Source: Cephalotus follicularis
Taxonomy: Eukaryota; Streptophyta; Magnoliopsida; Oxalidales; Cephalotaceae
Assembly (NCBI GenBank): GCA_001972305.1
Contig: BDDD01002359.1
Coordinates: forward strand, 165,674-229,673
Direction: 5' to 3'
DNA length: 64,000 bases
Shown here: positions 2,744-64,000 of the stretch, piece after piece
How the letters are laid out: every line of letters starts with the position of its first letter
Numbering within the stretch: the stretch's first letter is position 1
Notes under the pieces: model-generated
Databases searched by the model: none
What the model was told of the DNA's origin: nothing
Seen by the model: only the letters and a program-made list of their open reading frames with translations
Program-made: the position numbers and the translations under genes

Positions 2744-2814
2744 CAGTCGACTGCCCTCAAGAACCAGTCGGCTGTCGGGTTGAGTAGTCGACTGCATTCT
2801 ATGCCAGTCGACTG
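2744..2814. repeat. GTCGAC palindrome cluster, type S
   Basis: Four CAGTCGACTG-like sites in 71 bp (about 2744, 2764, 2785, 2805), one with the variant core GTCGGC. It lies about 1260-1330 bp from the LTR start, where the other L2 copy has a G-type cluster. Confidence 0.85.
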
Positions 2815-3823
2815 GTTTTGCCCAGAAATGTGGCAGATCAGTTTTGTGTAATGCAATTCCAATGTCAAATCATTCCAATGCAAGGAGAAAATTAACACAC
2901 ACATATGCATGATCATATCTTCCAAAACATAACACTACCCCTACCTCAATTTGCTATCCCAAGATCAATTGTGTGATCTTTCTCTTTAAAGCTCCCAAGC
3001 CTTTTCCAAGCTTTCACCAATCAATTCCTTTAATTTCAGTAGGTTCAATCTATGCATGTTATAGGTACATGCAACAATTCAGTAAATTCAGTAAGCATAA
3101 TAGCAAATCCAATCAGTAACTTAAGTCCTTATTTCATTAAGCTTTATATCCTTCCATTTACTACTTCTTATGCATGTTCAACTATTTCAATTCAAATCCT
3201 CTTAGTGAACAGTAGGTGTACATGGATACCATGAAGGAATTCAGTAGGTTATGAGGGAACTACAACAACCTTCTAATTCATTCTAGATCCCATACTCCTT
3301 TATTTGAGCTAGGTGTTGCATTCCATATAATTCCATCACTTAGAAGGTGTTAACTAATCATTTACAGTAGATTAACATTCCCTTAACCTCCATGTCAGCT
3401 TACAACAACACAGGAAGTTAGAATCGAACTTACCAGGAGGAGTCACAAGCTTGCCCTTTTTCCTTCTTTGAGGTTTAAGTTCCAAACCTTCCAAAGCAAG
3501 CTTTCAATCAATCAAGCAATTCTTTCAGTCATAAGTGTTTCCAACACTCATAATACCCTCACATTCAGATGATATAGGGCACGAATTTGCCAGAGAATCA
3601 TTTGTTCCACATTTCTCATCTTTCCTTCTCTCCCTCACATCTCATGTTTTCTTATCTTTCTTTCTTGATTCTTGCAGATGGCAGGCTTGCAGGTTGCATA
3701 GCACATCCAAGGGCTCTCCTTGCATGTCATGGTCGGTTGTGTATGTCTATGACACCTGTCATTAAGCATGCCACGCCTCAAGCTCAGTTGACACCTGCAC
3801 AGACACATGTTCTGTCGAATTTA

Positions 3824-3903
3824 CAGTCGACTGGATTCATTGGACAGTCGACTGTCCTCAACACGCAGCAGGCAGTCGACTGATCCCCTGTGTCAGTCGG
3901 CTG
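3824..3903. repeat. GTCGAC palindrome cluster, type S
   Basis: Perfect CAGTCGACTG at 3824, 3845 and 3873, plus CAGTCGGCTG at 3894. Offset from the LTR start is about 170-250 bp, the same as in the solo LTR at 42308-42968. Confidence 0.88.
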
Positions 3904-4076
3904 TTCTGGTGAAATAAGGGTTTCATAAGTTCGGTTTTCACCAAACGAACCTCCATTCATTCTAAACATAATTAATCACAGGAGAACATAACAATTGGAC
4001 AATAATTCAATTAAAATGTATATTTTATTTCAATAATCGGATCAATATACATCAAATTGAAATTGCGGTTATTACA

Positions 4077-6261: not shown

Positions 6262-7497
6262 TGAAATAAGCACTCTTGCAATATACAAGAGTGGTTCTCC
6301 GATTTAGAGTGGTTCGGCTAACTCTTGCCTACGGCCACTTTTCCCAAGGGGGCTCCTTGAGTTTCCACTATCTCGAATTGATTACGGTAGCAATTCGTTA
6401 CACCTTACAATTTCGTGATTGACCTCAATCACAAGACCTTGACCTCAAGACCTTAAAGGATTCTCCTCTTTTACAAGTGGTTGTGAATTTGTGTTTACAA
6501 GATAACCTCTCAAATAGGTTTGATATGGCTTATACAGAACACAATATGAATCTCCCAGAATAACTCAAGATATGGAGCTTTGAATCTTTTTAGAACACTA
6601 TGGAGCACTTGAGCTTTTTGACACTAGAATGCTTGAATTTGATTTCTCTCTTGATGTTGTGTAATTCTTGTTGAATTGATGTAGTTCAGTTGTACTTCTC
6701 TGAGATTTGAATCTTCCTTTTATAGGCAGAAGAGTCTTATAGCCGTTGCATAAATCCTGGAAGGTTTTGATTTAAAAATGTGTTGATGCAACTTTGTCTT
6801 TGTCTCTGCTGGCAGAAAGACGTCGATGTCTTTATAAAGGCGTCGATGTCTTTGACTGTTACTAGCCGTTGTAAGTGCGCTAACTAGTCGTTCCGTGTTT
6901 CCCGGGTCAATCATTTGAAAAGACGTCGATGTCTTCAGAAAGGCGTCAATGTCTTTGCTGGGAATTTGTCCAGGTATTTGAACTTATGAGCATCACATCA
7001 ACTTCTTCTTCAAGGGTCGATGTCTTTTCTAGATTTTACAGATTGGTCTAGAAAGACATCGATGTCTTTTGGAAGGGATCGATGTCTTTTGTTGGACGTC
7101 GATGTCTTCTGAAACAAGGACTGATGTCTTCATTCAAACTTGACCTGTAACTTTCGAAGCCTAAGACGTCGATGTCTTCTTGAAAGGGGTCGATGTCTTA
7201 TGGATAAACGTCGATGTCTTTGCCTGTAAGGATCGATGTCTTTGCTCAAATTTGACCTGTAACTTTGGACACTAAAGACGTCGATGTCTTTCTTCAAAGG
7301 GATCGATGTCTTTCTCCAAATTTGGCCTGTAACTTCGATGGCTTCAAGACGTCGATGTCTTCTTCAATGAGGGTCGATGTCTTTCTTCTTGTAGTTGATT
7401 TTTGCCTTTTGTACATCTTTCTAATAACTTGCACATCAAGTAAACTAAATGCAAATATGTTATCATCAAAACAAGGATTGAGACTAAATCGTCAACA
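6262..7497 (-). mobile_element. Sirevirus-type solo LTR, D-palindrome variant
   Basis: The outer edge at 7497 reads TGTTGACGATTTAGTCTCAA on the minus strand, matching the LTR start of Sireviruses A and B (TGTTGACATTTATGTCTCAA). The far end (6262-6420) matches the A LTR ends: AGAGTTAGCCGAACCACTCT, and the AGTGGAAACTCAAGGAG segment of the 3' LTR. There is no coding region on either side, so it is a solo LTR. Left edge is approximate; a weak duplication (TTGAT against TTTAT) fits 6262. Confidence 0.75.
6815..7385. repeat. GTCGAT palindrome cluster, type D, in higher-order repeats
   Basis: About 17 sites of the AAGACGTCGATGTCTT type, often alternating between a GACGTCGATGTC form and a GGATCGATGTC form. 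A spacer resembling CAAATTTGACCTGTAACTTT recurs near 7139, 7247 and 7318, so the cluster is itself a tandem array. It lies about 110-680 bp from the LTR start, where Sirevirus A carries type G. Confidence 0.88.
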
Positions 7498-7803: not shown

Positions 7804-7920
7804 TGGATTTAATGCATATATATAGTTAGAAACATGTTGTTGATGATATGCTTGAATTGTTTGGGTTTAATCCGTGAGACGGAAGTATGAGATGCAATTT
7901 ATGATTCACTGCAGCTGCGC

Positions 7921-8195
7921 AACCGTCGGCGGTTTCGATCAAACCGTCGACAGTTACGTGATACCACTGCACCTAATCGCACGAAGACGCTTAGGCGCTA
8001 AAGCGCTGGTGCTTTTGAGAAAAGCGTCGACGCTTAGGCGCTAAAGCGTTGACGCTTTTGAGAAAAGTGTCGACGCTTGCGACGTTAAAACTGCACCATT
8101 ACTCGACAAAAGCGTCGACGCTTCAACGCATGAGTGTCGACGCTTAAACGCATGAACGTTGACGCTTTGTATTGAAGCGTTGACGCTTTGGCGTG
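7921..8195. repeat. GTCGAC palindrome cluster, type G, in the copia C leader
   Basis: About ten sites of the AAGCGTCGACGCTT type with CpG-decay variants (GCGTTGACGC, GTGTCGACGC) and AGGCGCTAAAGCGCTG-like variants, in the leader after the primer site and outside the LTR. Confidence 0.88.
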
Positions 8196-24972: not shown

Positions 24973-25879
24973 ATGAATATAAAGATGCAATCATGCATGA
25001 CTGTTTATCATTTTGAAAACATTAATATATATATATATATATATATGCAATCATGCCAAGTGACTACAATCACTCATGTACCAATCATACCGCACAAGGG
25101 TACAAACAATCAATCACTTTGTCCGAACGCCACTGGTGGGTGTCATCTATCGCTACCTACTAGCACCAACGATGCACCACCTGACTACCACCATGCACTC
25201 CAATGATGATAGACTAGGTAAACACTACTACCGGCACTTGGCGGGCAGTTAACACTCACTATCTGCATTGCATATAAGTTTGGTGAATAAGCTCTAGCCA
25301 TAAACTCCTGGCACATAGGCTCACCGCCGTAGTCAGTGACATTCTCCGATCACTAGACCATCAGCATCACTTCAATTGAAATCAATTCATTGATATTACA
25401 TATATGCAATTTAACATAATAAGTTCTCTTTGGTAAAGAAAACAATAAAATGTTAATTCACTTTGGAAACAGTAAAACAATATTTTGCTCAATGGCATCA
25501 TAACACTTGTCATTGATTCTCATTGTAGAGAAAACACTTGAACACTTGCACTTTTGGAAACACTTGGAACATTTTCAATCATTTAACACTTTCCACATCT
25601 TGGGAAAACACTTGAAACAATTCTGGAAAACCACTTGAAACCGTAGTAGTTTGGTGAAATACTTTGTAACATAAATCAATTGTATGATATGCAATGCATA
25701 CTAACAATTCAATCAATTCCAGAACAACAATACAATCAATCTCAATATGTACAATCAAACAGTAGTTATAAAGCCGTTACAATCCTCTATTCTGATTATA
25801 CCAAGCCAGGAATGATTATGGAAATCCTCCTCCTTGGAACCTAGTGTAATTCTATGTGATTTAGTCAAACAGTGCACTT

Positions 25880-26045
25880 AAGTGTCGATAGTTTCGACTA
25901 AAGCGTCGCCACTTATATCCAAAGCGTCAACAGTACGCCTAAAGCGTCGACAACATTACTTCACTTAGGTATCGACATTTTCTACTCTAAGTGTCGACAT
26001 TTAGCTTAAAGCGTCGACGGTCAATATCTAAGCATCAACGCTTTA
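25880..26045. repeat. GTCGAC palindrome cluster, type G
   Basis: About nine sites of AAGCGTCGACG type with decay variants (AGTGTCGATAG, AAGCATCAACGC). Offset from the LTR start is about 1090-1255 bp, equivalent to the S-type cluster at 2744-2814 in copy 1. Confidence 0.82.
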
Positions 26046-26802
26046 TAGCGTACAGGCAATTTCCAGAAATCAAAGCATGCATTTGTAATTCAATCCAACC
26101 CAATTGACAGCATGAAATCATATAGTAATTATCCAGACATGATATACATACTATATGTTCAAAATCATGTCAAGGTTCCTACCACAATCGCTTATCCCAG
26201 AATCAATTGGTTTGATTCTTCTCTTTATAGTTCAAAGCCTTCACTCACCCAATCCAACTTCACTTTTTCCAGAATCTAATCCATCCAGGTTTGCATATTC
26301 AACAGTAGATATAGGAACGAAATCAACATGTATGTGTACTAATTAACTAAGATAATATTATCGGAGTTCAGATCAGAAGCTTAACAATAAGAACTTAAGC
26401 TTCAAGACTCACTTTGAAACTCCATTGCCAACATGAAATCTCCATTGATTTCCTAGAGTAATTCCTCTCCTTTACAAGTATTTCTAACACCCTACTTACT
26501 CACTCAACACTGATATAAATGGTTTCAATCCCGTATCAGTGATTCAGCAATTCTTTAACTCAAACAATTGGATTTTTCCTCTCTCTCTCTCCTACCATAT
26601 TCTTCCATCTTTTGTTTTTCTCTCTTTTGTTTTGCAGGTAACAGGTGCACAATCAACACTTAGAGACTCATGCGTCACATGGTAGCAGTTGAGGACACGT
26701 TTAGGGTGTTTTGACACGCTCTTGGACACTTGCCATACAAAGAAACCATTTCAACACCACTGTTTTGTTGCAAATGATGCTTAGCATACTCTTGACACCG
26801 TG

Positions 26803-27935: not shown

Positions 27936-29227
27936 TGTTCATGTGTTTTGAATGTTTTAAATTTATACCGCAAGTGCACGGTTGTGCAGTAACGGGTCGA
28001 ACGCTAGAAAACAAGCTAAATGAATTTTAATCTATCCAACCTAGGCGAATTATGCAATCTTGAAGGAATATTAAATTAACAAAAATACCGCACGCAACAT
28101 TATGATTTTAATCAAGCAGGAAATAAACTGAATAAAATATATAAGAAAAAATCGGTTTTAGGGTGTAAAAACTCACCATATATTATACTGAAAAACTCAC
28201 TTACTTGATTGCTCAAACATTGATAACCAATGACAGCTAGGTTGATACGGAGTGTGACTGTGATAAAAAATTGTATGAGTGGTCATGCTAGGTCTATACG
28301 GAGTTTTGTAGTGGCGACAAATCGTATGAGTAGACATCCTATGTCTATACGGAGTGTGTTCGGTGTGACAAACCGTATGAGTAGACTCCATTGATTGCAT
28401 TAAAAACCATTCATTCAACTATATTCTTATTCACTGACAAAGTGTTTGTGGATTTTAATCAGACAGACAAAGTTATGTGAAGGCAGAAAATTGAATAACA
28501 AATCAAAACTTCAAGGATTTTATTAATGGAGTTGGATCAATACAATATAGGCTTTGTTCTAACCCTAAAAACCTTGAAAGGTTAGCTAGAAAACATTGTA
28601 ATAAAACTACAAAAATTGAAGAAGAAGAAAATGGCTACTCTCAACTCTACACTTTCATACTATTATGGCTAGCTATTATATATATATAATTACAAAACTG
28701 ATTAAAAACAGAAATAAAGTTAACCTAATTATAAAACTAACAAAAATCTGAAACTTTCTAATTTTGCTGTCAGGCATCATAAGCGTCGACGCTTCCGTTC
28801 TGAGCATCAACGGTTTGTAGCTTTGGCGTTGACGCTGTGATGTTATGACATGAACTCTTTATGCGCTTTAGTTGCTAAGCATCGATGGTAATGAGCAAGG
28901 CGTCGAGGCTTAAAGTGTGTAATTCGATTGTTAAACTTTTGTACCAAAGCATTGACGCTTTAATCTTAATTGCTGGCGCTTTCAGTCTAAGCGTCGACGC
29001 TTACAAGCAAGGCATCGACGCTTTGCTCTGTTTTTCTGCAGAAAATTTCCATTCTTCAAGTTTTGATCTTTTTGTCTCCAATTCGTGCCAATTTGACTAG
29101 TATTAATGCACTTTGATCTTTATGGCCATATACCTGAAAATCAATGCAACACAACCAAAGTAGTCTATTCCAAGTATAAAAATATGACAAATAAATCCTT
29201 AAAAATAACATATTTTTATGCTAAACA
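27936..29227 (-). mobile_element. Athila-type LTR, left copy (G-palindrome variant)
   Basis: 1,292 bp from TGTTTAGCATAAAAATA (29227) to CATGAACA (27936) on the minus strand. It matches the right copy (58008-59248) throughout, except in the palindrome cluster. It also contains a tandem block (28240-28390) of about 57-bp units with GTATGAGTRGACATSCTA and CTATACGGAGT, present in the right copy too (58910-59060). Confidence 0.85.
28776..29041. repeat. GTCGAC palindrome cluster, type G
   Basis: About ten sites (AAGCGTCGACGCTT and decayed forms) 190-450 bp from the LTR start. It ends with CTTTGCTCTGTTTTTCTGCA at 29021-29040, identical to the edge of the Sirevirus B spacer cluster (41750-41769). 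Confidence 0.87.
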
Positions 29228-30411: not shown

Positions 30412-30655
30412 TGGTGATGCCTTGATCTTAAGCGGTGATGCATAGCGCTTAAGCATCGTCAATCAAGTTTCAAGCGTCGAAGCTTTGAGACAGTGTTGAA
30501 ATAATTTTGGAGGAAAGGTCTAAGAGGCAATGCTTAAGGACTAAGCATCAGCGCTTAGACTAAGTGTTGCCAAAATGGCAAAGTGCCTTTGGTTTGAAAT
30601 CAATTCCTTTTGAAAACGCGATCTAAGCGGCGATGCTTTTGGAAAAGCGGTGATG
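30412..30655. repeat. GTCGAC-related cluster, type G with GGTGATG variants
   Basis: Sites such as AAGCGGTGATGCTT, AGCGCTTAAGCATCG and CAAGCGTCGAAGCTTTG, about 720-970 bp inside the LTR. Most have lost the CG core, consistent with decay. Confidence 0.65.
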
Positions 30656-35506: not shown

Positions 35507-36082
35507 GTGGTGATCAAGAGGCTTATGTTAAGGCCCACGATAAGCCATGTGGAAACACTAACTTGAGTTAGTGAATGTTGTGAGAACCCAAGTGAGGGGT
35601 TAAAGAGAATCCCAAGTGAGGGGATAATGTTAGTTCTATTTACTTCATCACAAAAATAGATTTGGAGAGTGTCCAACCTATAATGTTCTATTTTAACGAG
35701 TTTATTTCACTCTTGTTGTTTCCGAATTTTACATCCTATTTTCGAAAATCTACTCGGAAAAAATAAACTTACGAACCTCATACTAAAGAAACTTACTAAA
35801 CTATAGAGAACACAACGTGAAGATAAAAAGAAGGTTTGTAAGCACATATATATAGAACAACGGAGTATCTAGGCAACCCTTACATAACCCTAACTAAGGT
35901 ATTACCTTACAGGTGATTTTGAGACAGTCTTTGACAAGGTCGGCAAGAGTTACGCCGAACCACTCTAAACTAGTGTTTGCAATCTCTCTAACTCTATCTC
36001 TTTTTATTGTTGGTTAAATTGCTATTGCTTGATTTTGTTGTTCATTGTTTTAAATTGCGAAAAGTTTAGATAATTTTTAGAA

Positions 36083-38730: not shown

Positions 38731-39447
38731 GCTTAAAATGTAGGATAAAAGCTTTTAGATGAGCCTTTTTTATTTGAATGCTTGGAGTATGATTTCTTTG
38801 AATGATTTGATATCTCTTGTGTTGCTCTTCTATTTTTCTTCCAAACATTCGTGTATATATATCCTCTTGCCTCATAGATCCGTTGGGAATGTATTGGGAT
38901 TGATTCCATAATGGAATGTCCACTAAAACTCTGTCAGAAACTGTTCCAGCCGACCAAAGCGTCGACTGTCACCTTTAAAGCGTCGACGGTCATGTGACCG
39001 TTAGGGATCTCAAATTCAAATTATCATCTCAAAGCGCAGGCGTTCAGAACGTTGGAGTCGACCGGCACCTCAAAGCGCTGACACTTAGTCTTGGGCGTCG
39101 ACGGTTTAGACAGTTTTAATTCCAATTGGCTTCACTGGTTTAGACGGCAGACGCTTTGCACTAAGAGCAGACGCTTAGTACCCCAAAGCGCAGACGCTTG
39201 AATCTGGGCATCGACGGTTTGAGTGTTTCTTCAACTTCTCCAAACGCTTCACCGGTAGACGCTTAGGCCCTTGTCTTGACTGCCTGTTAAAGCGCTGGCG
39301 CTTTAACCTTGGGCGTCGACGGTCTGACCTGTATCTGCAGAATTCTTGCTGTTTTGCTCACTTCATGGCTTTCTTGCACATCAAGAAACTTTGTTAAACA
39401 CAAATATGTTATCATCAAAACTTAGGATTGAGACATAAATGTCAACA
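38731..39447 (-). mobile_element. 3' LTR of Sirevirus B, truncated
   Basis: Minus-strand LTR start at 39447, matching the A 3' LTR (50998 to about 51712). It ends mid-LTR against A integrase at 38730. Confidence 0.86.
38950..39327. repeat. GTCGAC palindrome cluster, type G
   Basis: Inverted equivalent of the A LTR cluster, including AAAGCGTCGACTG, AAAGCGTCGACGGT and TTAAAGCGCTGGCGCTTTAA. Confidence 0.86.
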
Positions 39448-41497: not shown

Positions 41498-41644
41498 GAT
41501 TGATGTTGTATGAAGGTCAATCTGTGTTTTTCGAGTGATTATCGCCAAGAAATCGTCGGAGATATGTGTTTTTGAGTTTAGGGTTTAATGTTTTGTGCGT
41601 AAAACCCTTGGCAGACGGTGCTTTTTAACTTAAAACGCGATTAA

Positions 41645-41770
41645 AGCGTCGATCGTTTGGGGTTAAGCGTCGGTGCTTAGACCAATTTCCCCAATTTTGA
41701 ACCCTAATTTTTCTTTAAAGCGCTGACGCTTTAAAAGCAACAGTCGGCGCTTTGCTCTGTTTTTCTGCAG
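41645..41770. repeat. Palindrome cluster, type G, between pol and third ORF of B
   Basis: AAGCGTCGATCG, AAGCGTCGGTGCTT, AAAGCGCTGACGCTTTA and CAGTCGGCGCTTTG, ending in CTTTGCTCTGTTTTTCTGCA (41750-41769). Internal spacer, not LTR. Confidence 0.85.
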
Positions 41771-42307: not shown

Positions 42308-42968
42308 TGTCACACCCCGTTTTCCATTCACGTACAATGGACCAGCATATGTGGTGATATCAGAAATAAGCATAAAATAATATTCCAGCAATATCATTAA
42401 ATACATAAACAATTTGCGGAAGTAGTTATTAAGCTGAAATATAAGCCGTCCGCACGCATCCCATACTACGTGCGGGTAAAACAACAGTTATCCTTACATT
42501 ACATCATAACGGGGTAGGAACCGTTCAATACAATACCAAAACAGTACATCAACAACATTAAAATAACAACCTTAAGGATAAAGTGGTTGTTAGATCTGCA
42601 GAGAACATGCAAACATTCCCCTTTTGCATGTTCTGGCAGGTGGTGAGACATAAGTGCCATTCCCATCTGTCCATCATTGTCTTGCACATGCCAGAAAATC
42701 TGTTCTGTCAAAACCAGTCGACTGCTCATAGTGGGCAGTCGACTGCCCTCCTCACGTGGCAGACAGTCGGCTGTTGCCCTGTGGCAGTCGGCTGTCTGAC
42801 CCAAATTAGGGTTTCTAATCTTTGATACATCCCTAATTGCACATTTAATCACCCCTCAACAATTACCAATCATATAAATCAATAAAATTGGACAATTAAC
42901 TCAAATAAAATGCATATCTAATTTAAATATTAGATCAAAATGCATTAATTAAAGTTGTGGTCATTACA
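42308..42968 (-). mobile_element. Solo LTR inserted in Sirevirus B RNase H
   Basis: 661 bp, TGTCACACCCCG to ATTACA on the plus strand, flanked by TTAT at 42304-42307 and 42969-42972. Removing it restores the RNase H text seen intact in copy A near 48100-48125. On the minus strand it starts TGTAATGACCACAAC, like L2. Its cluster offset equals that of L2 copy 1, so it is an L2-related short LTR. Confidence 0.9.
42714..42792. repeat. GTCGAC palindrome cluster, type S
   Basis: CAGTCGACTG near 42716 and 42738, and CAGTCGGCTG near 42764 and 42782; about 175-255 bp from the LTR start. Confidence 0.87.
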
Positions 42969-45171: not shown

Positions 45172-45186
45172 CTACAAACATAAATT

Positions 45187-46677: not shown

Positions 46678-46680
46678 AGT

Positions 46681-47208
46681 TCCATAATGGAATGTCCACT
46701 AAAACTCTGTCAGAAACTGTTCCAGCCGACCAAAGCGTCGACTGTCACCTTTAAAGCGTCGACGGTCATGTGACCATTAGGGATCTCAAATTCAAATTAT
46801 CAGCTCAAAGCGCAGGAGTTCAAAACGTTGTAGTCGACCGGCACCTCAAAGCGCTGACGCTTACTCTTGGGCGTCGACGGATTAAACAGTTTTAATTCCA
46901 ATTGGCTTCACTGGTTTAGACGGCAGACGCTTTGCACTAAGAGCAGACGCTTAGTACCCCAAAGCGCAGACGCTTGAATCTGGGCATCGACGGTTTGAGT
47001 GTTTCTTCAACTTCTCCAAACGCTTCACCGGTAGACGCTTAGGCCCTTGTCTCGACTGATGCTTTAACCTTGGGCGTCGACGGTCTGACCTGTATCTGCA
47101 GAATTCTTGCTGTTTTGCTCACTTCATGGCTTTCTTGCACATCAAGAAACTTTGTTAAACACAAATATGTTATCATCAAAACTTAGGATTGAGACATAAA
47201 TGTCAACA
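46681..47208 (-). mobile_element. 5' LTR of Sirevirus B, truncated
   Basis: LTR start at 47208 (TGTTGACA on minus). It runs 528 bp, then joins gag at a deletion junction (CATAGT/TCCATAATGG). It lies against A RT at 47209. Confidence 0.86.
46720..47085. repeat. GTCGAC palindrome cluster, type G
   Basis: Near-identical to 38950-39327, with a short deletion around AAAGCGCTGGCGC (near 47060). Confidence 0.86.
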
Positions 47209-48640: not shown

Positions 48641-48772
48641 CTGCAGAAAAATAGAGCAAAGCACCGACTGTTGCTTTTAAAGCGTCAGCGCTTTAAAGCA
48701 AAATTAGGGTTCAAAATTGGGGAAATTGGTCTAAGCGCCGACGCTTAACCCCAAACTGTTGACTCTTTAATC
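48641..48772. repeat. Palindrome cluster, type G, between pol and third ORF of A
   Basis: CTGCAGAAAAATAGAGCAAA edge, then CACCGACTGTTGC, AAAGCGTCAGCGCTTTAAAG, AAGCGCCGACGCTTAA and ACTGTTGACTC. Same place as in copy B. Confidence 0.85.
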
Positions 48773-48913: not shown

Positions 48914-50164
48914 ATGCCTAGAACTAAGAATGTTGAGTAAGGCCAAGGCTCCAAGGCAAAGAAGAAATCAGCTGGGCAAAAGGGGAAGGGGACAGCCACT
49001 CCATCTGCAACTCCTGAGGTCATCCCATCTCTTCCTAGGTACCCTGAGGCTTATTTCAATAGAAAAATACTTGTAGGCAAAGTATTAGATTTTGATTTTT
49101 GCTCTAGAGAAGGATTTTCCATTGTGGAATGGATTAGGTTTCAAGGTTTAGAACCTTTTTTCTCTCTAAATTTGCCTAGCTATCCCAAACTCATGAAAGA
49201 ATTCTATGTACATATACGAGGTAGCTCAATGGATAGCTTAACCACTATGGTTAAAAATAAGACTATTGATGTAGACTTAAGTAGACTAAACACTATCTTG
49301 AATGTACCAAACGATGGTGCTATGGGTTGGAATCAAAGGTCTTGGGTGACTAGTTCAGATTTTGACCGACAAGACTGTGTGCGTGTGTTATTTGGTGAAA
49401 ACGCTGATCATGTTCAGCGAATGTATACTAGGAACCTACCCTTGGATTATAGATTCCTACACCGTGTGGTATGTACGCACATTCTACCAAAAGCCGGTGG
49501 GTTCGACTGGGTGACGCACATGGAAGACTGCACTATGTATCATTTGATTACTGGCCAAAGAATCAATGTTCTCTTCCTGATGCTCAATCATATGCACTCA
49601 ATTCACGACCGAGAGAACGCAAGACTAGGATATAGCAATATAATAACCAAGATTCTCCAATTTTTCAATATCGACCTTACTGGAGAAGTACACCATGATC
49701 TTCAAAGTGCTGACAAGCTTGGGAAAGGAACCCTTGGGAGGATGGGGTTCAATAAGCACAAGAGGCTCGGTACATGGATTCCAAGAGACGAGGACTCCAA
49801 TCGAGTTATTGAAGAGGAAAGAGAAGCTGAGATAGGGGAAGAAGCTGAAAACATACCTCTACAGATCGAACCTCAAGCTGAACCAATTCTGGATGTCCAT
49901 CTTCCGAGGAGTAGGCTAGATGAGATATTTGATTCTATCAAAGGGCTACAGGAAAATATTGAGGAGATGAAGACGAATATGCAATCCGTGAAGAGGCGTC
50001 AAAGGGGAATTGCCAAAAAGTTTGCCGACACCGGCATTATCGAATATGGAGGACTAATCTCTTGATCCTCTAGCCACGAGGACAATCCCCCAGATGATGC
50101 AGCAACCGACGACATGGAGGGAGAGGTCGGTGGTGACGATGAGGGCACTCACATGGACGAATGA
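48914..50164 (+). pseudogene. Sirevirus A third ORF (plant-transposon-protein-like)
   Basis: 416-codon reading, ATG 48914 to TGA 50162-50164, broken by TAA 48938-48940 and TGA 50063-50065. Both positions are sense codons in copy B. The open part 49124-50065 (313 codons) holds the domain with FYVHIRGSSMDSLTTMVKNK, LPLDYRFLHRVVCTHILPKA and MYHLITGQRINVLFLMLNHM, then the coiled coil. The acidic tail ends HMDE. Equal length in A and B, with different lesions, argues that the ancestral ORF was real. Confidence 0.8.
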
Positions 50165-50997: not shown

Positions 50998-51951
50998 TGT
51001 TGACATTTATGTCTCAATCCTAAGTTTTGATGATAACATATTTGTGTTTAACAAAGTTTCTTGATGTGCAAGAATGCCATAAAGTGAGCAAAACAACAAG
51101 AATTCTGCAAATACAGGTCAGACCGTCGACGCCCAAGGTTAAAGCGTCAGCGCTTTAGGAGGCAGTCGAGACAAGGGCCTAAGCGTCTACTGGTGGAGCG
51201 TTTGGAGAAGTGGAAGAAACACTCAAACCGTCAACGCCCAGATTCAAGCGTCTGCGTTTTGGGGTACTAAGCGTCTGCTCTTAGTGCAAAGCGTCTGCCG
51301 TCTAAACCAGTGAAGCCAATTGGAATTAAAATTGTCCCAAGCGTCGACGCCCAAGACTAAGCGTCAGCGCTTTGAGGTGCCGGTCTACTCCAACGTTTTG
51401 AACGCCTGCGCTTTGAGCTGAAAATTTGAATTTGAGATCCCTAACGGTCACATGACCGTCGACGCTTCAAAGGTGACAGTCGACGCTTTGGTCGGCTGGA
51501 ACAGTTTCTGACAGAGTTTTAGTGGACATTCCATTATGGAATCAATCCCAATACATTCCCAACAGATCTATGAGGCAACAAGATATATATACACAAATGT
51601 TTGGAAGAAAAATAGAAGTGCAACACAAGAGATATCAAATCATTCAAAGAAATCATACTCCAAGCATTCAAATCAAAAAGGCTCATCTAAAAGCTTTTAT
51701 CCTACATTTTAAGCCTTTGCTGTTCTCACTTTATTTGAGCAATTTTATCTTGTAATATCCAACCTGTGAGAGGTTTAGATAAAAACACTACTTCATTTAT
51801 CTTGATTGTAATAGGGGAGTGAACCCTAAGAGAAATTGGGGAGTGAACCCAAGAGTGTTGTAAGTGATTGAGTTCAATCACAAAGGTGTACCGAGTAGCA
51901 CCCGGAATTGTATTCGGAGAACTAGTGGAAACTTAAGGAGATCCTTATTCA
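50998..51951 (+). mobile_element. 3' LTR of Sirevirus A
   Basis: 954 bp, TGTTGACATTTATG to CCTTATTCA, followed by TCATC. It lacks the distal about 190 bp (GCCGAACCACTCT region and C-tract) seen in the 5' LTR and the solo LTR. Confidence 0.86.
51121..51495. repeat. GTCGAC palindrome cluster, type G
   Basis: Same array as 35133-35506, nearly identical; includes GACCGTCGACGCTTCAAAG and GACAGTCGACGCTTTGG. Confidence 0.88.
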
Positions 51952-54355: not shown

Positions 54356-57003
54356 TGTAACACCCCCGAACGGTGGGAGCCTTTACAGGTCAAAATTACT
54401 GAACCTAACAAAACATATCTTAACTGAACATATGCAAAATTTTATTTCCAAAATACGTGGTCCTCAAAACATAACATATTCTGATAACATAAATGAACTA
54501 AACATAGTCTGAAATCTTAAACATAATCCATAAGTCAAATACTGAAATCATAAATCAAAAGTAACTTATTGTTCACAGACTAGTCCTAACAGAAACATAG
54601 TAGGATCGCACTCCTAGAAGATCCTCTGACATAAGGTGTACATCTCTCATCACACATTGCCCCGTTGCCCCTGATAACCTGCCGCATGGAAACAAAAACG
54701 CGGCTGAGCAACCCTCAGTACATATATAGAATGTCAAAACAGTAAACGATACTTTATAAGCAGTAATATTTCAAAGCTTACTTCAAAACAAAAATCTTAA
54801 GCAATAATAAGTTTAAACATTCTTTATAAATTGCTTCAGCATTTTCGTATAAACCAATTCCATAAATTTCAAAAACATAAGCATACCTTTCAAAACATAA
54901 ATTCCATACTGAGCCACATAACATATCACATATCAGAACACATATAGCAAGGGAGGTGCCACTTCCACATGCCAAATGGAATTGATCCATACGCTTCTAT
55001 CGTAAATAGCGAATCCATAATCCTCCTCATGGGATTATCATAACATAGAGAGACGTCGTACACTAATCACACCGCTACGGAAGTGTCATGTCCCCGTGCC
55101 AAGGCTACGACATGCCTATGGTACGCCTCATAGGTCGGTACGAATACTTAGTACTTTGCCATTTCAAAAAGATTGATCTTATTAATTTAAAACACATAGG
55201 GAAAGGCTTTTTCGAAACATATTCAAAAATTGTTATCAAGCGATATCATTTGCACATTGCACATATTTTCAGAATCGGAAATCAACTCATTTATTTTCAC
55301 CATAAAGGAGATGATCATATCATAAATCATAGCAAAATATAAAAACAGGAACATTTAATTTCGTAAAGGTGTCAAAAACTGACTTTATTTCTGAAACATA
55401 TCAAGGAATGAACATCCATTCACAAAACAAAACTGAATTTATCGAAGAGAGTGTCAAAGAGCAGAAAATATCCGAACCTTATGCGATCACAGAATATAAC
55501 TTACGAAATGACTGATGAATTCTAACTGCCCCTCATAACACAAAAAATCTAAAAGATACAAAATCATTCATATAAGGATCTGAAAAACATTGTGGACATT
55601 ATTACGGTGTTTAAAACAGACCCCGATTCATCGAAAGAACAAACGGATAAGAGAACTTGAAAACAGAATTTCCTGGACAAACCACCCGACTATTACAGAG
55701 CTCCAGTTGACTATTGGAAGCTTGGTAGGCGACTATCCCACAGCGCCAGCCGACTACATGAACTGAACTGCAGCTAGTCGACTATGATAGGGGTCCCGCT
55801 GGCTGTGCAAGACATATCAGCCGACTGATCATACAGACAGCCGACTACTCAAGGCTTAACAGCGGACTGTTCTGAACGACCGAACAACAAAAACTCTAAC
55901 AATCATATGCAGAAATCTGTCAAAACCTGAATAACATTATACCAGGGTACTATAACCATTTCAATATGACATTATACGGTATTAAAATAGTAAAAGAACA
56001 CTGAATTCATGCGGAACAACACAGACAGTGGTTAAGTTTTGAAAAGAGAGATGACTTCTAATCACACGCATACATATTTATAGTCCAATTTTCTGTCAAA
56101 TGCCATTAACAGTTATCAAAACTAGTATGTAACTTATATATGATGCCTAATACATGTCGACAGTTTCAAGGACCATGACGGAGCATAAGATGACAGGAAT
56201 CAAAATAACAAAACTCTAACAGACTATATGAACATAAAATCGGATGACATCAAGATTAAAACCAATTTACTAAACCATAAACATAAAGGAGAAAAACTTG
56301 AAGGATGCCAAAACAATGGAAAAGATGCCAAAATCAGTGGTGTACAACGTCTGTTTCAACATAAATCAAAAGAAGGAAAACACACATTCACATCCTGCCA
56401 TTATTATGTATATCAAGTAAAACAATCCTTAAACCGAACTATGAATAACAAACCTGATTTTGATGAAGACACTTGCGCAAGAACAAAGTGAATTCCAAAT
56501 TACAGAATCGGTTACCAACAGGCGATATAGGAACGGATGACAAAGTGGTGTGGCTAACTTTAGACTTAAATAGAAAAGGAGAGGGGATTTAAGCTATAAT
56601 AAGGAAATATGGAGACAAAATCTGATTAGATAAAGAAAGAGGAGGATTTTTAGGAGAAGATAATGGAAAGAGGGAGAGAAATCGGTGAAGAGATAAGGGG
56701 TAGAGACTCTTACGGGAGAGACAGGAGAGAGAGAAGAAAAGAAAAAAGATTTTTAAACAAAAATAAAGATTTTGTTTTTGATAAGTTTCAAAATAACCAA
56801 AATTACAAATTTTGATTTATTTTAAAAGAAACGTGACCAATAAACATAACCCTTACCAAAACACATACACATACTAACATACCCAAAGTCCAAGCTGGTA
56901 TTAGTCAGCCCATAACACATAACCCAACATAAAGCAAACAAGCTACATAACAAAACATATTAAAAAGTCCGAAAATATGCACACGGACAAACAGGGTGTT
57001 ACA
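54356..57003 (-). mobile_element. 5' LTR of gypsy G2 (family L3)
   Basis: 2,648 bp from TGTAACACCCTGTTTGTCC (57003) to GGGGGTGTTACA (54356) on the minus strand. Related LTRs on the plus strand lie at 59249-61783 and from 62274. A shared block has GCACGGGGACGTGACACTTC (about 60917 here inverted at 55083). No gene; the plus-strand ORF at 56228-56491 is antisense and only shared because the LTRs are copies. Confidence 0.88.
55685..55872. repeat. GTCGAC palindrome cluster, type S, decayed
   Basis: About eight sites (CAGCCGACTAC, TAGTCGACTATG, CAGCCGACTGATC, CAGTTGACTATTG), 1,130-1,320 bp from the LTR start, the same offset as in the LTR at 62274. Confidence 0.82.
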
Positions 57004-58007: not shown

Positions 58008-59248
58008 TGTTTAGCATAAAAATGTGTTATTTTTAATGAGTTATTTGTTATATTTTTATGCTTGGAATAGACTACTTTGGTTGTGTTATATTGATTTTCA
58101 GGTACAAGTGTAAAAGGATCAAAGTGCAAGAATACTACCCAAAGTTGGGCAAATTAGAGCTTGAAAGTGTAGAGATTGAAGAATTGACAAATTCTACAGA
58201 AATAGAGCAAAACGCATCGATGTCTTTCATAGGGATCGACATTTTTCTGGGTTTGCATGAAACGCATCGATGTCTTTTGTTGGGGATCGATGTTCTTTCT
58301 GGGATTGCAACTTATCTTCAAGAGCTATGACAAAGACATCGACGTTTTTCATCAAACAGATCGACTTCTTTGTGCAAATTCAACCTGTAACTTTTGGATC
58401 AAAACGCATCGACGTCTTTTAGCAAAAGGATCGACGTCTAATGCGCATCTCAGCAAAACGTGATTTTTTTTACAAAAGACGTCGACCTTCAACCAAAGGC
58501 GTAGACGTCTTCTTCTACAGCAGAAATAGAAAGTTAGATTTTTTTTGCCAGATTTTGTAACTAGGATTGATTTATTTCCGTTTTTGATTAGTTTTGTAGT
58601 ATAAAAACAATGCAATGCCGGCCAAATTAAGAGGAGATTGTGTAGAGGCTTGTAGAAACCCTATTTTTTTTTTATGAATTTTAGTTTTGTTTCATAATGT
58701 TTAGTAGCTAAACTTCTCAAGGTTTTGGGGGAGAACAAAGCCTAGATTGTTATTGTTTCAATTCCATCAATGAAAATCCTTGAATATTTGATTTGTTCTT
58801 CAATATTTCTGCCTTCGCACACACTTTGTCTGTCTGATTAAAATCCACAAACATCTTGTCGGTGAAGCTGAAAGTTGGTGAATAAATGGTGCTTAATTCA
58901 ATCAACGGAGTCTACTCATACGATTTGCCACAACGAACACACTTCTTATAGACCTAGCATGTCTACTCATACGTCTTGCCGCCGTTGCCGTACTTCGTAT
59001 AGACCTAGCATGTCTACTCATACGTCTTGTCAACACAGTCGCACTCCGTATCGACCTAGCTGCCGCTGTTTATCAAGGTATGATCGTTCAATTAAATGAA
59101 ATTGTTCAATACAATCTACGGTGAGTTTCTATACCCTAAAACCGCTTTTTCATTATATATTTTCTTAGCTTCTATTCATTGGTTTGATAGTTTATCTCAA
59201 AATTGGTATACTTCACCTAGGTTGAATATACTAAAACAATTTATTTTT
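58008..59248 (+). mobile_element. Athila-type LTR, right copy (D-palindrome variant)
   Basis: Starts TGTTTAGCATAAAAATG and matches the left copy (29227 to about 28000, inverted) through GCTTGGAATAGACTACTTTG, the CTATACGGAGT-type tandem block and CACCTAGGTTGAATA, with type D palindromes replacing type G. The last about 60 bp and the primer site are missing where an L3 LTR joins near 59248. Confidence 0.83.
58194..58515. repeat. GTCGAT palindrome cluster, type D
   Basis: About twelve sites (AACGCATCGATGTCTTT, AGGGATCGACATTTT, AAGACATCGACGTTTTT, AAAGACGTCGACCTTC), 190-500 bp from the LTR start. Block 58373-58440 resembles the spacer-plus-palindrome unit of the Sirevirus solo LTR (7243-7314). 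Confidence 0.87.
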
Positions 59249-61783
59249 ACTTTAAAAATCCTTTTTGTTTTATTTATTTTAATTATTTATTTATTTCCTT
59301 TTTATTTTTATTTTCCTTTTCTTTTCTTCCCTATTTCTTCTTCCTCCTTATTTCTTTCCTTCTTCTTTCTTCCTCACCCGAAGTCTCCCTCTCCCTCATT
59401 AAATTCCACACATTTTCTACATTCTTTTCCTTTCTAATTCCCCACAAATCCTCTCCTTTTCCTTATGTGGGCATATTTGGTCTCCCCCTTTTTCCTTTTG
59501 TTGTGCCATTGCCATTCTATAATTGCTTCTTTCTTTTTCTGCCTTGTGCACTGCCAATTCTGCCTTGTTAGTGTGTGATCATCTGCTGTGTAATTCGTTC
59601 TTCAAAATTCGAAGAGGTAATCTTGATCCTTAGTTGTTTCTTTTGGGTTGAATTCACTTAGTTTGTTATGCATGTATAAGCATGTTCTTGTTTTGTATTC
59701 TTCTTCCTCTGTTTTTGTTCACAGCCGAATTGTGAGTGTGTGCTAGTGTTCCTTCTACTGTTTTTGTGTTCTGGGAATCATTACAGGTCAGTTAATTCAT
59801 CTCCTCTAATTATGGTTTTGTTTCAATGGCATACATTGAGTTTTTATGCTCTCTATGTCCTTTGGGTCTTGATTCCTGCCTAAACATGTTGTCATTGTGT
59901 TAGTAATATTGTCAAAACGTTTAATGCACCTAGATATGTCACAAACTGGGTTTATAACATCTAAAACTGATAAAAGACAGAATCTGGACACCCATGTATA
60001 AATTTCTTCTTGCTTCCTTTTTAAAGCTAAGCCACTGCTGAATTGTTTATATGTCATTTCTGTGTTTCTATGTCACCTACAAGTCATATATAATCATATG
60101 TTTATGACCATATGTCTCTGGGTTAATGTAGAAACCATTTGAACCATTTTTAGTAGTGAATTGTTGAATTTCCAACTGTTCTGTCACCCAGAACAGTCGG
60201 CTGTCTCTGTGGACAGTCGGCTGGAATGGTTGAGTAGCCAACTGCCATATGAATGCAGTCGACTACCTTAGGTTGAGTAGTCAACTGGAGGTATGAACAC
60301 AGTCGACTGCCTGCACTTTAGTTTGAGTAGTCGACTGTCTTGCTTCCCCATTCGACTGGAGCCCTGTTTTAGTCGATTGTTTTGCCCTGGAATGTACTGT
60401 TTTCAACTGTTTTGATTCGTTTGATCCCTGAATCAATCTGAATCTTTTCTAAAGATGGTTAAGAGTCTGTTTCATACTTCTGGTGTGTTTTAGACTCTTA
60501 TACGTATGTTTTTGAATGCCTTTTAGATTGTTGTGCTTCAAGTGGATTCCGTTTCAATTGTCTATTCGTAAGTACTTTGTGAGCGCATAGGGTAAGGATT
60601 TTCTGTTCCTTGGCTATTTGATATTCGAACTGAAAACTGTTTTGCATCTTCATTTATGAAATCAACGATGTTTTATGATTATGATACGTTTCAAATTTAA
60701 AGTTGGTTTGACGTTTTTAAATGATTTCGACTTTAAACGTATGATATGTTATGATACGATATGTTATGATACCGTTGTGAGAGGTTTTCGAATATGTTGT
60801 GTGAAAACATATGTTATGTGATTTTAAATTGATTTTGATAAATCAATAATTTTGAAATAATTACTGAGTATTGTACCCACCTATGGGGCGTATCCACAGG
60901 CACGTCCTAGGCCTGGCACGGGGACGTGACACTTCCGTAGCAGTGTGATTAGACTACGGCATCTCTGAGTGTATGAACAAATCCCATGAGGTGGATTTGT
61001 GGATCTTCTATGTATGGTAGAGGCGTATGAATCGATTCTAGTTTATGTGATCTGGGGTGAATTCAGATATGTGATCTGAGGTGAATTCAGATATATGGTC
61101 CGAGGTGTGATCGGATATGTGTATGTGAGAATTGACTTGTGTAGTGCCGTACACTTTAATTCTAGTGGGCATGTGGAATTAGCGCCTCCCTTGCCAAAAT
61201 TTATTTTATGTGATATGTATATGGCTCAGTATGTTTTATGAACTATGATTCTGATGTTTTGAAATGTTCTGTAATTGTTTCAAAAGATGTGCAATTGATA
61301 TTTGAATATGATTAAACTGTTTTATCCGTTAAAGATTTCTATTACGTTATTATTGAAATATTAATGTTTTTGAATTACCGTTTACTATTTTATTTCCCTT
61401 ATCCGTACTGAGGTTTGCTCAGCCGCGTTTTTGTTTCAATGCCGTAGGTTTGCAGGAGCAGCGGTGGAAAGTGTGATTGAGTGATGACCACCCTATGTGT
61501 TGGATCCTTAGGAGAGTGATCCTTATGTTATGTTTAGTGCTCAGAAACATTGATTATTATGTTTTATGTTTTTAAATTGAAACTGAATTATGTTTTGAGC
61601 TTTTCGCAACTACTTAATATGTTAAATGGTTAAGGGTTAATGTTTTGATAAGACTGCCACGTTTTTGGCTGTTATTGGTTAATAAAGCAAACTTATGATT
61701 TGATAAATAATGTATATGCTCAGATAAGTAATGTTATGTATGATATGACCCTGTGACGACTCCCGCCATCCGGGGGTGTTACA
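59249..61783 (+). mobile_element. L3-family gypsy LTR, 5'-truncated
   Basis: Ends CCGGGGGTGTTACA at 61783. It matches the LTR from 62274 after its first about 170 bp, and the G2 LTR inverted. It has a pyrimidine-rich stretch (59270-59400), a palindrome cluster, and ATGTTATGATACGATATG repeats near 60740-60780. No credible gene in 2.5 kb. Confidence 0.78.
60187..60385. repeat. GTCGAC palindrome cluster, type S
   Basis: Eight or nine sites (CAGTCGGCTGTC, CAGTCGACTACC, TAGTCGACTGTC, TAGTCAACTGG) ending in GTTTTGCCCTGGAATGT, a tail shared with the L2 cluster at 2805-2845 (GGTTTTGCCCAGAAATGT). Confidence 0.86.
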
Positions 61784-62273
61784 GTTCACCTCGTACACTA
61801 ATGAAAACGAGGCACGAAATTTCCTTTTAGATTTGCGTGAGCGAACTAAAGAGTGGTAGTCAGCTCAAGTTTCCGAGAGAGTTTTACCAAATAAAGGGTA
61901 CGTGGTAGAAGGAGCAGTTGCTAAAGAAGCACAGCTAGAAAGTCTCGTGACTAGACTAGAATCACTAATTAGGGGTACCACAAAAGTAAATCAAATCGAT
62001 CAAAACACCCCTATGTGTTCCTGGTGCCAGTCCCCAAACCATGTTTTTGAAGAATGCCAAATTTATATTGACAGCCAATATGCTCCTGAAAATGTGTCTG
62101 CTATGAACCAATACAACCCATATAGTAATACTTACAATTCGGGTTTGCAAAATCATCCAAATTTCTCATGGAGTCAAGGGCAAAACATGCGAGGACAATC
62201 CAGCTTTTCGGGGCAGCCTTCTAGAGTTGGTGCCCCACCTTCACACTTTGTGGGATAACCTTCGAGCTTCGCT
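61784..62273 (+). pseudogene. Athila-type gag, C-terminal part
   Basis: The ORF 61902-62258 has CSWCQSPNHVFEEC, a variant knuckle, then NQYNPYSNTYNSGLQNHPNF, the motif well known from Athila gag (usually NPGWRNHPNFSW). One in-frame stop lies upstream (near 61856). It is cut off on both sides by L3 LTRs. It probably belongs to the same element as the LTR at 58008. Confidence 0.85.
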
Positions 62274-64000
62274 TGTAATACCCTGTTCATTCGTAAATAT
62301 ATTTTACAAATTATTATCTGTGTTTTCGGGCTGTTAATTGTGTTTGATTTTAAAGTCCGGTTGCCTTACGATTCGGGTTTATGTGAATTGTTCGGACTAA
62401 TACCGGTCCAAAATCTGGGTATGTTATGCTATGTTGGGTTTTATAAATTCTTATTTTAATCCAAAACTTATTTTATTAAAATCAAATTATTATTCTTTTA
62501 TTTTAATATTCCTTATTCCTATTCATTATTAATTCATTTTATTATTATTTCTTTTATTTCCTTTTTCCTATTTTATTCTTTTTCTCCCACTTTTCTTCTA
62601 CCTCCTTCCACCATCCTCCTTCTTTCTAGTAAATCCCACCATCAAAATGCCATGTTCACTCTCTCTTTTCTATATCTAATTCCAGAAAAGTTCCTTTCAT
62701 CCTCCTTTTGTCAAATCATGTCTCCTCATTTTCTTTTTTTTGAGTGCCATTGTCATTTTTATATGATGCCACCATCCTTATTGCAAACCACTCCGAATCT
62801 GCCTTGTTAGTGTGAAATAATCTGTTGTGTGATTCATTCTTCAAAGTTCAAGAGGTAATCTCAACCCTTAATTGATTCTTTTGGGTTAAATTCTCTTAGT
62901 TTGCTATGTATGTCTAAATATATCATGGTTTTGTATTCTTCTATTTTTGTCACAGCTGAATTGTGTGTTGTGTTTGTGTTCTTCCTACTATTTTCTGGGT
63001 TCCTTAACATCACTACAGGTCAGTGAATTCATGCCCTTTAATTATAGTTTTGTTTCAATGGCTTACTTTGAGTTTTTGTGCTCTTGGTATCTTAGGGTCT
63101 TTTATTCTTGCCGAAAAGTGTTGTCATTGTGTTAGTGATGTTATCTGCACGTTTCATGCACCTATATATGTCACCAACTTCTTTTATAACATCTGTAATC
63201 AATTAGAAACAAAATCTGGACATGTTCATGCAATGTCTTCTTGCTTCCTTTTGCAAGTTAAATCATTGAAACGTCGTTTCCTTGTCAAATTTGTGTTTGT
63301 AAGTCACCTACAAGTCATATATAATCATATGTTTATGTCCATATGTCTCTAGTTTAATGTAGAAACCATTTGAACCATTTTCAGTAGCAAATCGTCGAAT
63401 TTCAAACTGTTCTGTCGCCCAGAACAGTCGGCTGTCTGTGTGGACAGTCGGCTGGAATGGTTGTGTAGTCGACTGGAGGGAAGAACACAGTCGACTACCT
63501 GTATTTTTTATTGTGTAGTCGACTGTTCATATGGTCCAGTCGACTGCCAAGCATCCCCAGTCGACTGGACCCCTGTTCTAGTCGACTGTTTTGCCCTGGA
63601 ATGTGCTGTTTTCAACTGTTTTGATTCGTTTGATCCCCGAATCGATCCGAATCTTTTCCAAACACTGTTATGAGTATGTTTAATGCTTCCGATGTGTTTT
63701 AAACTCTTATACATATGATTTTGAATGACTTTTGGATTGTTTACTTCAAAGGAGAATTTGTTTTTGATCGCCTATTCGTAAGTACTTTGCAAGCGCATAA
63801 GGTACGGATTTTCTGTTCCTTGGCTATCTGACCTTCAAACTGAAACTGTTTTGATAAATATCTTCGTTTAAGAAATCAATGATGTTTCATGATTTTAATA
63901 CGTTTTGAATTTAAAGTTGGTTTGACATTCTATTTGATTCCGACTTTATCTATACAATATGTTATGGTACGATATGTTATGATATGATATGTTATAATAC
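62274..64000 (+). mobile_element. L3-family gypsy LTR, 5' part, runs off window
   Basis: Starts TGTAATACCCTGTTCATTCG against Athila gag. Nearly parallel to 59249-61783: pyrimidine-rich block 62450-62640, GATTCTTTTGGGTTAAATTC block, palindrome cluster, and ACGATATGTTATGATA at the window end. No gene seen. Confidence 0.8.
63422..63592. repeat. GTCGAC palindrome cluster, type S
   Basis: Eight sites (CAGTCGGCTGTC, TAGTCGACTGG, CAGTCGACTACC, CAGTCGACTGCC, CAGTCGACTGGAC) ending in GTTTTGCCCTGGAATGTGCT. About 1,150-1,320 bp from the LTR start. Confidence 0.88.

What the first reader, a model, noticed from the sequence alone, without database searches (positions are those of the whole stretch)
2744..63592. 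A family of GTCGAC-core palindrome clusters shared by unrelated LTR retrotransposons
I count about 19 clusters, each 70-570 bp with 4-17 imperfect palindromes of 10-16 bp. They come in three flavours: S (CAGTCGACTG), G (AAGCGTCGACGCTT) and D (AAGACGTCGATGTCTT). They lie only in noncoding parts: LTRs of Sirevirus copia, Athila-type gypsy and chromovirus-like gypsy, one copia leader, and a pol-ORF spacer. Palindromic LTR motifs are, from memory, reported for maize Sireviruses. A common core across superfamilies in one genome is not something I recognise. It could be a host-factor site, a hairpin or siRNA source, or a recombination hotspot.
Basis: partly seen in the sequence, partly recalled or inferred. 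Interest (0 to 1): 0.9.

Follow-up and report, generated by a model that had tools for sequence, protein, structure and literature searches.

The report
Phased palindrome arrays in retrotransposon LTRs
In this plant genome, unrelated families of jumping genes carry the same kind of DNA array, short mirror-image sites repeated about every 21 letters outside their genes, which looks like a shared and partly swapped set of control sites; related arrays were known in one group of plant retrotransposons.

Summary
A scan for the three stated motifs finds 152 sites (28.4±6.2 in 40 resamples); 137 form 18 clusters, none in coding-homology intervals. The window lies in a 1.58-Gb plant assembly, by protein hits Cephalotus follicularis. 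There CAGTCGACTG occurs 197,377 times (control 939) and GTCGAC pairs 20-22 bp apart 166,339 times (control 1,742). S and G sites rarely neighbour each other (153 against 107,493 SS and 14,867 GG). Homologous Athila-type LTRs carry G in one copy and D in the other. A non-palindromic D spacer occurs 895 times (control 7) and is shared by a copia and an Athila LTR family. Palindromic LTR arrays are known from Sireviruses (PMC2829016), including CGGTCGACCG in Vitis, so this is a new variant of a known kind. Best explanation: U3 arrays of dimer-binding sites, in part exchanged as cassettes between superfamilies. The factor is unknown.

The parts
2735..2822 (.). S array, 4 sites at 21/20/20 bp, noncoding LTR-like sequence
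3815..3912 (+). S array, 4 sites (21/28/21 bp); array and 3' flank to 4077 match the end of the solo LTR
6810..7390 (+). D array before the PBS (TGGTATCAGAG at 7792) of a copia element, read as its 5' LTR; groups of sites about 21 bp apart separated by a repeated spacer
7915..8195 (+). G array in the leader of the same copia element, between PBS and gag ORF (9392)
25875..26050 (.). G array, 7 called sites; 3' flank 65% alike over 188 bp to 2822-3003 beside an S array (weak)
27945..29227 (-). Athila-type LTR (TGTTTAGC start; degenerate tRNA-Asp-type PBS at 27917); lower end inferred
28775..29030 (-). G array inside that LTR; its edge shares 23 bp with the Sirevirus spacer at 41748
30420..30665 (.). 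weaker G array, 6 sites
35130..35510 (+). G array in Sirevirus 5' LTR (homology from 35010; PBS 36128; poly-C run 36094-36111)
38950..39330 (-). G array, second copy of the Sirevirus LTR
41640..41760 (-). G array in the Sirevirus spacer between pol and the PF20167 ORF
42308..42968 (+). solo LTR (TGTCACACCCC to TTACA, TTAT duplicated) inside Sirevirus pol; holds S array 42719-42789
46725..47090 (-). G array, third copy of the Sirevirus LTR
48664..48765 (+). G array in the Sirevirus spacer before the PF20167 ORF
48941..50065 (+). ORF with Pfam PF20167 (Transposase_32), best hits Cephalotus follicularis proteins
51115..51495 (+). G array in Sirevirus 3' LTR (starts 50998 after GGGGAGAT)
55695..55875 (-). 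weak S array in a gypsy LTR region (LTR end TTACA, PBS TGGTATCAGAG near 54343 on -)
58008..59170 (+). Athila-type LTR homologous to 27945-29227; end approximate
58205..58515 (+). D array inside that LTR; shares spacer CAAATTCAACCTGTAACTTT (2 mismatches) with the copia D array
60185..60385 (+). S array, 8 called sites, LTR-like sequence related to 54914-56748 (-)
63415..63595 (+). S array, 8 sites, related copy

Best explanation
The clusters are cis-regulatory arrays in the U3 part of LTRs, and in two cases in front of internal genes. Each palindrome is a site for a dimeric DNA-binding protein. Sites are placed about two helical turns (21 bp) apart, so neighbouring dimers lie on the same face of the DNA and can bind together, upstream of the LTR TATA box. 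S, G and D are different site specificities. Arrays grow by tandem duplication, S and G arrays stay apart, and at least the D array has passed between copia and gypsy LTRs as a cassette. Shown here: arrays, phase, conservation concentrated in the palindromes, separation of S from G, flavour switch in one Athila-type LTR pair, and a D cassette shared by a copia and an Athila-type LTR family. Inferred: protein binding, transcriptional effect, the factor (host or element-encoded), and how cassettes move.
For: Phase: 68 of 151 consecutive gaps are 20-22 bp, 0 in 40 resamples; genome-wide 166,339 of the 211,993 GTCGAC pairs found with 9-27 bases between have 14-16 between. Footprint: palindrome positions hold 0.58-1.99 bits; positions outside hold 0.3 or less, except 0.53 one position beyond the D 16-mer on either side; 64 of 69 S, 128 of 138 G and 52 of 53 D 26-mers are distinct (calling by consensus inflates the inside values). 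Purity: 153 mixed S/G neighbours against 107,493 SS and 14,867 GG. Position: TATA-like boxes start 84 and 82 bp past the array bounds in the two Athila-type LTRs. Switch: flanks of these LTRs align on both sides while the array is G in one and D in the other. Cassette: D spacer plus half-site 895 times, control 7; the 4 copies fetched were 1 copia-type and 3 Athila-type, and between the types similarity at E 1e-8 was confined to the arrays.
Against: No factor identified; no binding, expression or methylation data. TATA placement is telling only for the Athila-type pair: one of them has a further candidate at 39 bp, the copia D LTR has its first at 329 bp, and none lies within 700 bp past the S60 array on +. 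Sites were chosen by consensus. The 28-bp step of S arrays is not a whole number of helical turns. Rows show neighbouring sites with G-like and D-like arms, so purity is shown for S against G only. The reversed-pattern control is itself rich at 20-22 bp (1,742 of 3,019), so GTCGAC may not be the only phased core. After masking, a Sirevirus G spacer and the S solo LTR also share an 11-mer on opposite strands, so one shared word alone proves little.
Confidence: 0.62

Rival explanations
1. Anti-silencing targets: the arrays are dense binding sites for a protein, perhaps element-encoded, that removes DNA methylation, like VANC proteins of Arabidopsis VANDAL elements. Site density gives specificity and different flavours keep families apart.
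For: VANC targets are short motifs in noncoding tandem repeats that differ between related elements, and VANC6 also acts on an unrelated repeat (PMC5735166 passages). Similar pattern here: flavour switch between related LTRs and sharing by unrelated ones. Changes at CpG positions of G sites are mostly of deamination type (43 of 48), so methylation has acted on the sites.
Against: No candidate protein: the model of the PF20167 ORF was uninformative (mean pLDDT 45.1). The passages read do not describe VANC motifs as palindromic or helically phased ('palindrom' 0 occurrences). Deamination shows the sites have been methylated, not protected.
Confidence: 0.2
2. RNA hairpin or siRNA source: palindromes fold in LTR transcripts and feed small-RNA silencing, as reported for maize Sirevirus palindromes.
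For: Fold energies below resamples in 9 arrays or parts of arrays on both strands, z -1.2 to -7.7, 25 resamples each. Maize Sirevirus palindromes are small-RNA hotspots (PMC10760457, PMC5311732 passages).
Against: No excess of paired changes: 24 double changes against 34.5 expected in 119 G site types, 2 against 3.65 in 20 S types (sums; the mismatch limit biases against doubles). Hairpins need no 21-bp DNA phase and would let arm sequence drift. May still be a side effect.
Confidence: 0.1
3. Neutral minisatellites: tandem duplication by slippage made the arrays and nothing selects them.
For: Tandem Repeats Finder reports units of 20-22, 43, 70 and 112 bp in the arrays.
Against: Spacers have diverged far more than palindromes; same phase in unrelated LTRs; S and G seldom adjoin.
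Confidence: 0.05
4. Convergence only (about origin, compatible with the best explanation of function): unrelated LTRs evolved sites for the same factor independently, with no exchange of sequence.
For: Apart from the D pair and the Athila-Sirevirus edge, arrays of unrelated elements share little beyond the motif once palindromes are masked.
Against: For D, a 20-bp non-palindromic spacer and its order relative to the palindromes are shared by copia and Athila-type LTRs. For G, one Athila-type LTR and the Sirevirus spacer share 23 bp at the array edge.
Confidence: 0.12

Closest known systems
Sirevirus LTR repeated motifs (RM boxes), Bousios et al. 2010, PMC2829016 (section 9 read in full; passages of other sections)
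   Same: Palindromic, many copies per LTR, CpG-rich, before a TATA box, extra copies before the envelope-like ORF; the Vitis motif CGGTCGACCG holds GTCGAC.
   Different: Authors give CGG-CCG as signature (except Tnd-1) and the motif as absent from classic retrotransposons; here the core is GTCGAC/TCGA without CGG-CCG, also in gypsy LTRs and a copia leader, with a 21-bp phase and a flavour switch. The passages read do not describe these.
Maize Sirevirus palindrome clusters (Bousios et al. 2016; not held, known only through passages of PMC10760457 and PMC5311732)
   Same: Palindrome-rich LTR regulatory region; the same palindrome also tops Helitrons (PMC10760457), so sharing across element orders has a precedent.
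   Different: CACCGGAC-GTCCGGTG motif; no phase or flavour switch in the passages read.
VANC target motifs of VANDAL elements, PMC5735166 (passages), PMC10398659 (abstract and outline)
   Same: Short motif in noncoding tandem arrays, differing between related elements, reaching an unrelated one.
   Different: DNA transposons, motif YAGTATTAY, known element-encoded binder.
Repeated enhancer sites of other LTRs, such as HTLV-1 21-bp repeats or Tnt1 BII boxes (recalled; no call)
   Same: Protein-binding sites repeated in U3.
   Different: Animal virus or other plant family; few copies.

Membership tests
Sirevirus (host element of the 35-52 kb arrays) | PPT followed by AT/TG at the 3' LTR start | tested here: met
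   AAAATGGGGAGAT then TGTTGACA at 50998; definition from PMC2829016
Sirevirus | C-rich integrase signal near the LTR end | tested here: met
   18 C at 36094-36111, 16 bp before the PBS at 36128
Sirevirus | copia gag/RT with an extra ORF between pol and 3' LTR | tested here: met
   PF14223, PF07727, PF20167; identity of the ORF with ENV not tested
Sirevirus RM boxes | palindromic repeats in the LTR and before the extra ORF | tested here: met
Sirevirus RM boxes | CGG-CCG core signature | tested here: not met
   G consensus AAGCGTCGACGCTT
Sirevirus RM boxes | restricted to Sireviruses | tested here: not met
   arrays in Athila-type and other gypsy LTRs
Sirevirus RM boxes | define CpG islands | tested here: inconclusive
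   CpG o/e 1.11-1.98 in 8 G/D arrays (flanks 0.19-0.54), but 0.56-0.87 in 6 S arrays, not above flanks in 4 of them
Athila-type gypsy (27945-29227) | tRNA-Asp PBS TGGCGCCGTTGCC (recalled) | tested here: inconclusive
   2 mismatches at 27917; coding domains not tested
VANC-type anti-silencing target | bound by an element-encoded VANC protein | not testable with these tools
   no binding data

The most novel reading that the evidence does not exclude
One small set of dimeric DNA-binding factors governs most LTR retrotransposons of this genome. Copia and gypsy elements swap phased binding-site cassettes like interchangeable enhancer parts and switch specificity (S, G, D) repeatedly, as in an arms race with silencing.
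Probability: 0.3. Interest if true: 0.88.

Novelty: new variant of a known kind. Interest (0 to 1): 0.72.

Why it matters
If the arrays are binding sites, one DNA-binding assay on short probes could reveal what controls a large part of the retrotransposons of a 1.6-Gb genome. The shared D cassette gives a direct case of what looks like regulatory DNA passing between copia and gypsy elements. A flavour switch between otherwise homologous LTRs makes the arms-race idea for LTR control regions testable by comparing copies.

Tried and rejected
Generic palindromes: the window's excess at 20-22 bp disappears once TCGA cores are excluded, so the phase there belongs to these motifs. In the 50 kb sampled by then, exact palindromes were too few to say.

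Structure of the PF20167 ORF as a possible DNA binder: mean pLDDT 45.1; no fold search made.

Alignment of the 2.7-4.1 kb and 25.8-27.1 kb LTRs over full length looks random over most of its length, so a possible S/G switch there rests only on 188 bp at 65% and 71 bp at 82% and is not claimed.

A copia-like LTR in L038 with a G array and a 75-bp flank 80% like the copia D LTR: a suggestive further switch, not claimed.

Shared edge CTGCAGAAAAACAGAGCAAAGC: 455 forward and 490 reverse copies within 1 mismatch, control 0; the 10 copies fetched are all Sirevirus spacers, so it is Sirevirus sequence and the Athila match is known from one copy only.

First D-spacer pattern was mistyped and gave 0 hits; corrected. 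Paper searches: (GTCGAC with palindrome, LTR, retrotransposon, motif) 0 papers; (chromovirus) 2 papers, listing only; nothing relevant in the listing; (Cephalotus) listing only; Retand paper PMC11963269 passages describe tandem repeats between pol and 3' LTR, a different place.
Full report
WHAT WAS CHECKED. The window is 64 kb of nested LTR retrotransposons. An ORF at 48941-50065 has its best database hit, at 89% identity, in a Cephalotus follicularis protein, and the window lies in contig C2359 of a 1.577-Gb assembly. This gave 152 sites against 28.4±6.2 in 40 first-order Markov resamples. Starts with at least four sites in 150 bp numbered 78; none occurred in any resample. Grouping sites within 150 bp gives 18 clusters with 137 sites; none of these 137 lies in intervals with coding homology, which cover 36.8% of the window. 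One Sirevirus LTR is present four times and one Sirevirus spacer twice, so about 14 arrays are distinct, and some of those sit in related LTRs.

THE PHASE. Of 151 consecutive gaps, 22 are 20, 35 are 21 and 11 are 22 bp; no resample had any gap in that range. Gaps of 24-27 and 29-38 bp are absent, and 28 occurs five times. Genome-wide, GTCGAC followed by GTCGAC with 9-27 bases between occurs 211,993 times (reversed-pattern control 3,019); with 14-16 bases between, that is 20-22 bp centre to centre, 166,339 times (control 1,742). The control is itself rich at 20-22 bp, which I cannot explain; another phased core may exist. CAGTCGACTG occurs 197,377 times (control 939) and AAGCGTCGACGCTT 18,108 times (control 15). 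These counts come from many copies of a limited number of element families, so they show abundance, not independent events. In 20 stretches of 5 kb from other contigs (95,844 readable bases) 11 of 20 held a cluster, 16 clusters in all; ten resamples gave 0 or 1. Within these 16 clusters 57 of 106 gaps are 20-22 bp.

WHAT IS CONSERVED. In the window plus these 20 stretches, positions inside the S, G and D palindromes carry 0.58-1.99 bits and positions outside carry 0.3 or less, except 0.53 one position beyond the D 16-mer on either side; 64 of 69 S, 128 of 138 G and 52 of 53 D 26-mers are distinct. Site calling by consensus inflates the inside, but the contrast with diverged spacers is what a protein-binding array would leave and a plain minisatellite would not. 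Of 48 changes at CpG positions in 40 G sites, 43 are C to T or G to A; the 40 were picked by me from the 83 called G sites, leaving out duplicate Sirevirus copies, lone sites and some weak ones. Much of the imperfection is thus decay of methylated CpG. Double changes of paired positions are not in excess (24 against 34.5 expected in G, 2 against 3.65 in S; sums), so nothing indicates selection on base pairing, though the mismatch limit works against doubles. The arrays fold better than resamples, z from -1.2 to -7.7 over 9 arrays or parts of arrays and both strands.

WHERE THEY SIT. G arrays lie in a Sirevirus LTR (5' LTR homology from 35010, PBS 36128; 3' LTR from 50998 after GGGGAGAT) and in the Sirevirus spacer between pol and a PF20167 ORF. 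A copia element with PBS at 7792 and gag at 9392 has a D array before the PBS, in what I read as its LTR, and a G array in its leader. S arrays lie in a solo LTR with TGTCACACCCC and TTACA ends and a short target duplication inside Sirevirus pol, in sequence matching its end (3.8 kb), and in LTR-like copies related to that of a gypsy element with PBS near 54343 on the minus strand. I call these LTRs gypsy by their neighbours and ends; a chromodomain was not tested for them. Two homologous LTRs beginning TGTTTAGC, at 27945-29227 (-) and 58008-59170 (+), are Athila-type by a degenerate tRNA-Asp PBS of the first (2 mismatches; motif recalled). In both, a TATA-like box starts 84 and 82 bp past the array bounds, with a further candidate at 39 bp in one. 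For other LTRs the TATA evidence is weak: 329 bp in the copia LTR and none within 700 bp of the S60 array on the plus strand.

FLAVOURS. S and G 8-mers at 20-22 bp: S-S 107,493 (control 336), G-G 14,867 (control 31), mixed 82 forward and 71 reverse (control 0). S and G arrays are thus kept apart. G and D are less exclusive: rows show neighbouring sites with G-like and D-like arms, and a few clusters mix calls. In the Athila-type pair the flanks align on both sides (79% and 78%), while the array between them does not and is G in one, D in the other.

CASSETTES. After masking the palindromes, five pairs of arrays share an 11-mer: copia D with Athila D (ACCTGTAACTTT), Athila G with the Sirevirus spacer (GCTCTGTTTTTCTGCAG), two pairs among S arrays, and the Sirevirus spacer with the S solo LTR on opposite strands. 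The last may be chance. CAAATTTGACCTGTAACTTT occurs in the window with up to 2 mismatches at four places, all in the two D arrays. The spacer with a following D half-site occurs 460 times forward and 435 reverse in the genome, control 3 and 4. Of 4 copies fetched, chosen by me as different variants, L055 has copia-D flanks and L056-L058 have Athila-type flanks, and between the two groups similarity at E 1e-8 is confined to the arrays. L052 and L037, from the random sample, are further copies of the two families with D arrays. So the D cassette is present in several copies of both a copia and a gypsy LTR; transfer between superfamilies is the simplest reading. The shared G edge is weaker: the 10 genome copies fetched are all Sirevirus spacers, and only the window's Athila-type copy is known to share it.

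COMPARISON. Bousios et al. 2010 (PMC2829016; section 9 read in full, passages of others) describe palindromic repeated motifs in 13 Sireviruses: LTR clusters before a TATA box, CpG islands, extra clusters before the envelope-like gene, a CGG-CCG signature, and CGGTCGACCG in the Vitis element. They call it absent from classic retrotransposons and could not name a common binding factor. The maize case (Bousios 2016, not held; cited in passages of PMC10760457 and PMC5311732) links palindromes to small RNAs, and PMC10760457 reports the same palindrome in Helitrons. The Sirevirus arrays here follow that plan but lack CGG-CCG. I did not see gypsy or leader arrays, the 21-bp phase, S/G separation, the flavour switch or a shared cassette in the passages read of six papers or in the titles and abstracts listed by searches; subscription papers are mostly outside that library. 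VANC targets in Arabidopsis (PMC5735166 passages, PMC10398659 abstract) are the closest functional analogy for switching motif arrays.

VERDICT. Real, genome-wide, and structured far beyond chance; an extension of a known kind rather than a wholly new one. Most likely phased dimer-binding sites in LTR control regions (0.62). The anti-silencing variant remains open (0.2).

Noticed in passing
window 38731-47208: A Sirevirus copy lies inverted inside another Sirevirus of the same family, with its gag joined directly to an LTR piece at 46680; a solo LTR sits in its pol at 42308-42968.
   Followed up: partly
window 5366-6184 (-): ORF of 272 aa with Pfam PF24496 (DUF7588), element type not worked out.
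   Followed up: no
genome G000: The reversed control CAGCTG-CAGCTG is also concentrated at 20-22 bp (1,742, of 3,019 with 9-27 bases between), which suggests another phased palindrome core.
   Followed up: no
L057:1378-2486: An Athila-type LTR match ends at 1747 and Sirevirus gag-like coding sequence starts at 1752: a junction of the two superfamilies near a D array.
   Followed up: no
window 58910-59060 and 28237-28386: Both Athila-type LTRs hold a tandem repeat of 51-bp units with GTCTACTCATACG-like sequence downstream of the palindrome array.
   Followed up: no
window 48941-50065, 40409-41584: PF20167 (Transposase_32) ORFs placed where Sireviruses carry an envelope-like gene; the 117 relatives listed for the first bear Cephalotus follicularis names.
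   Followed up: partly
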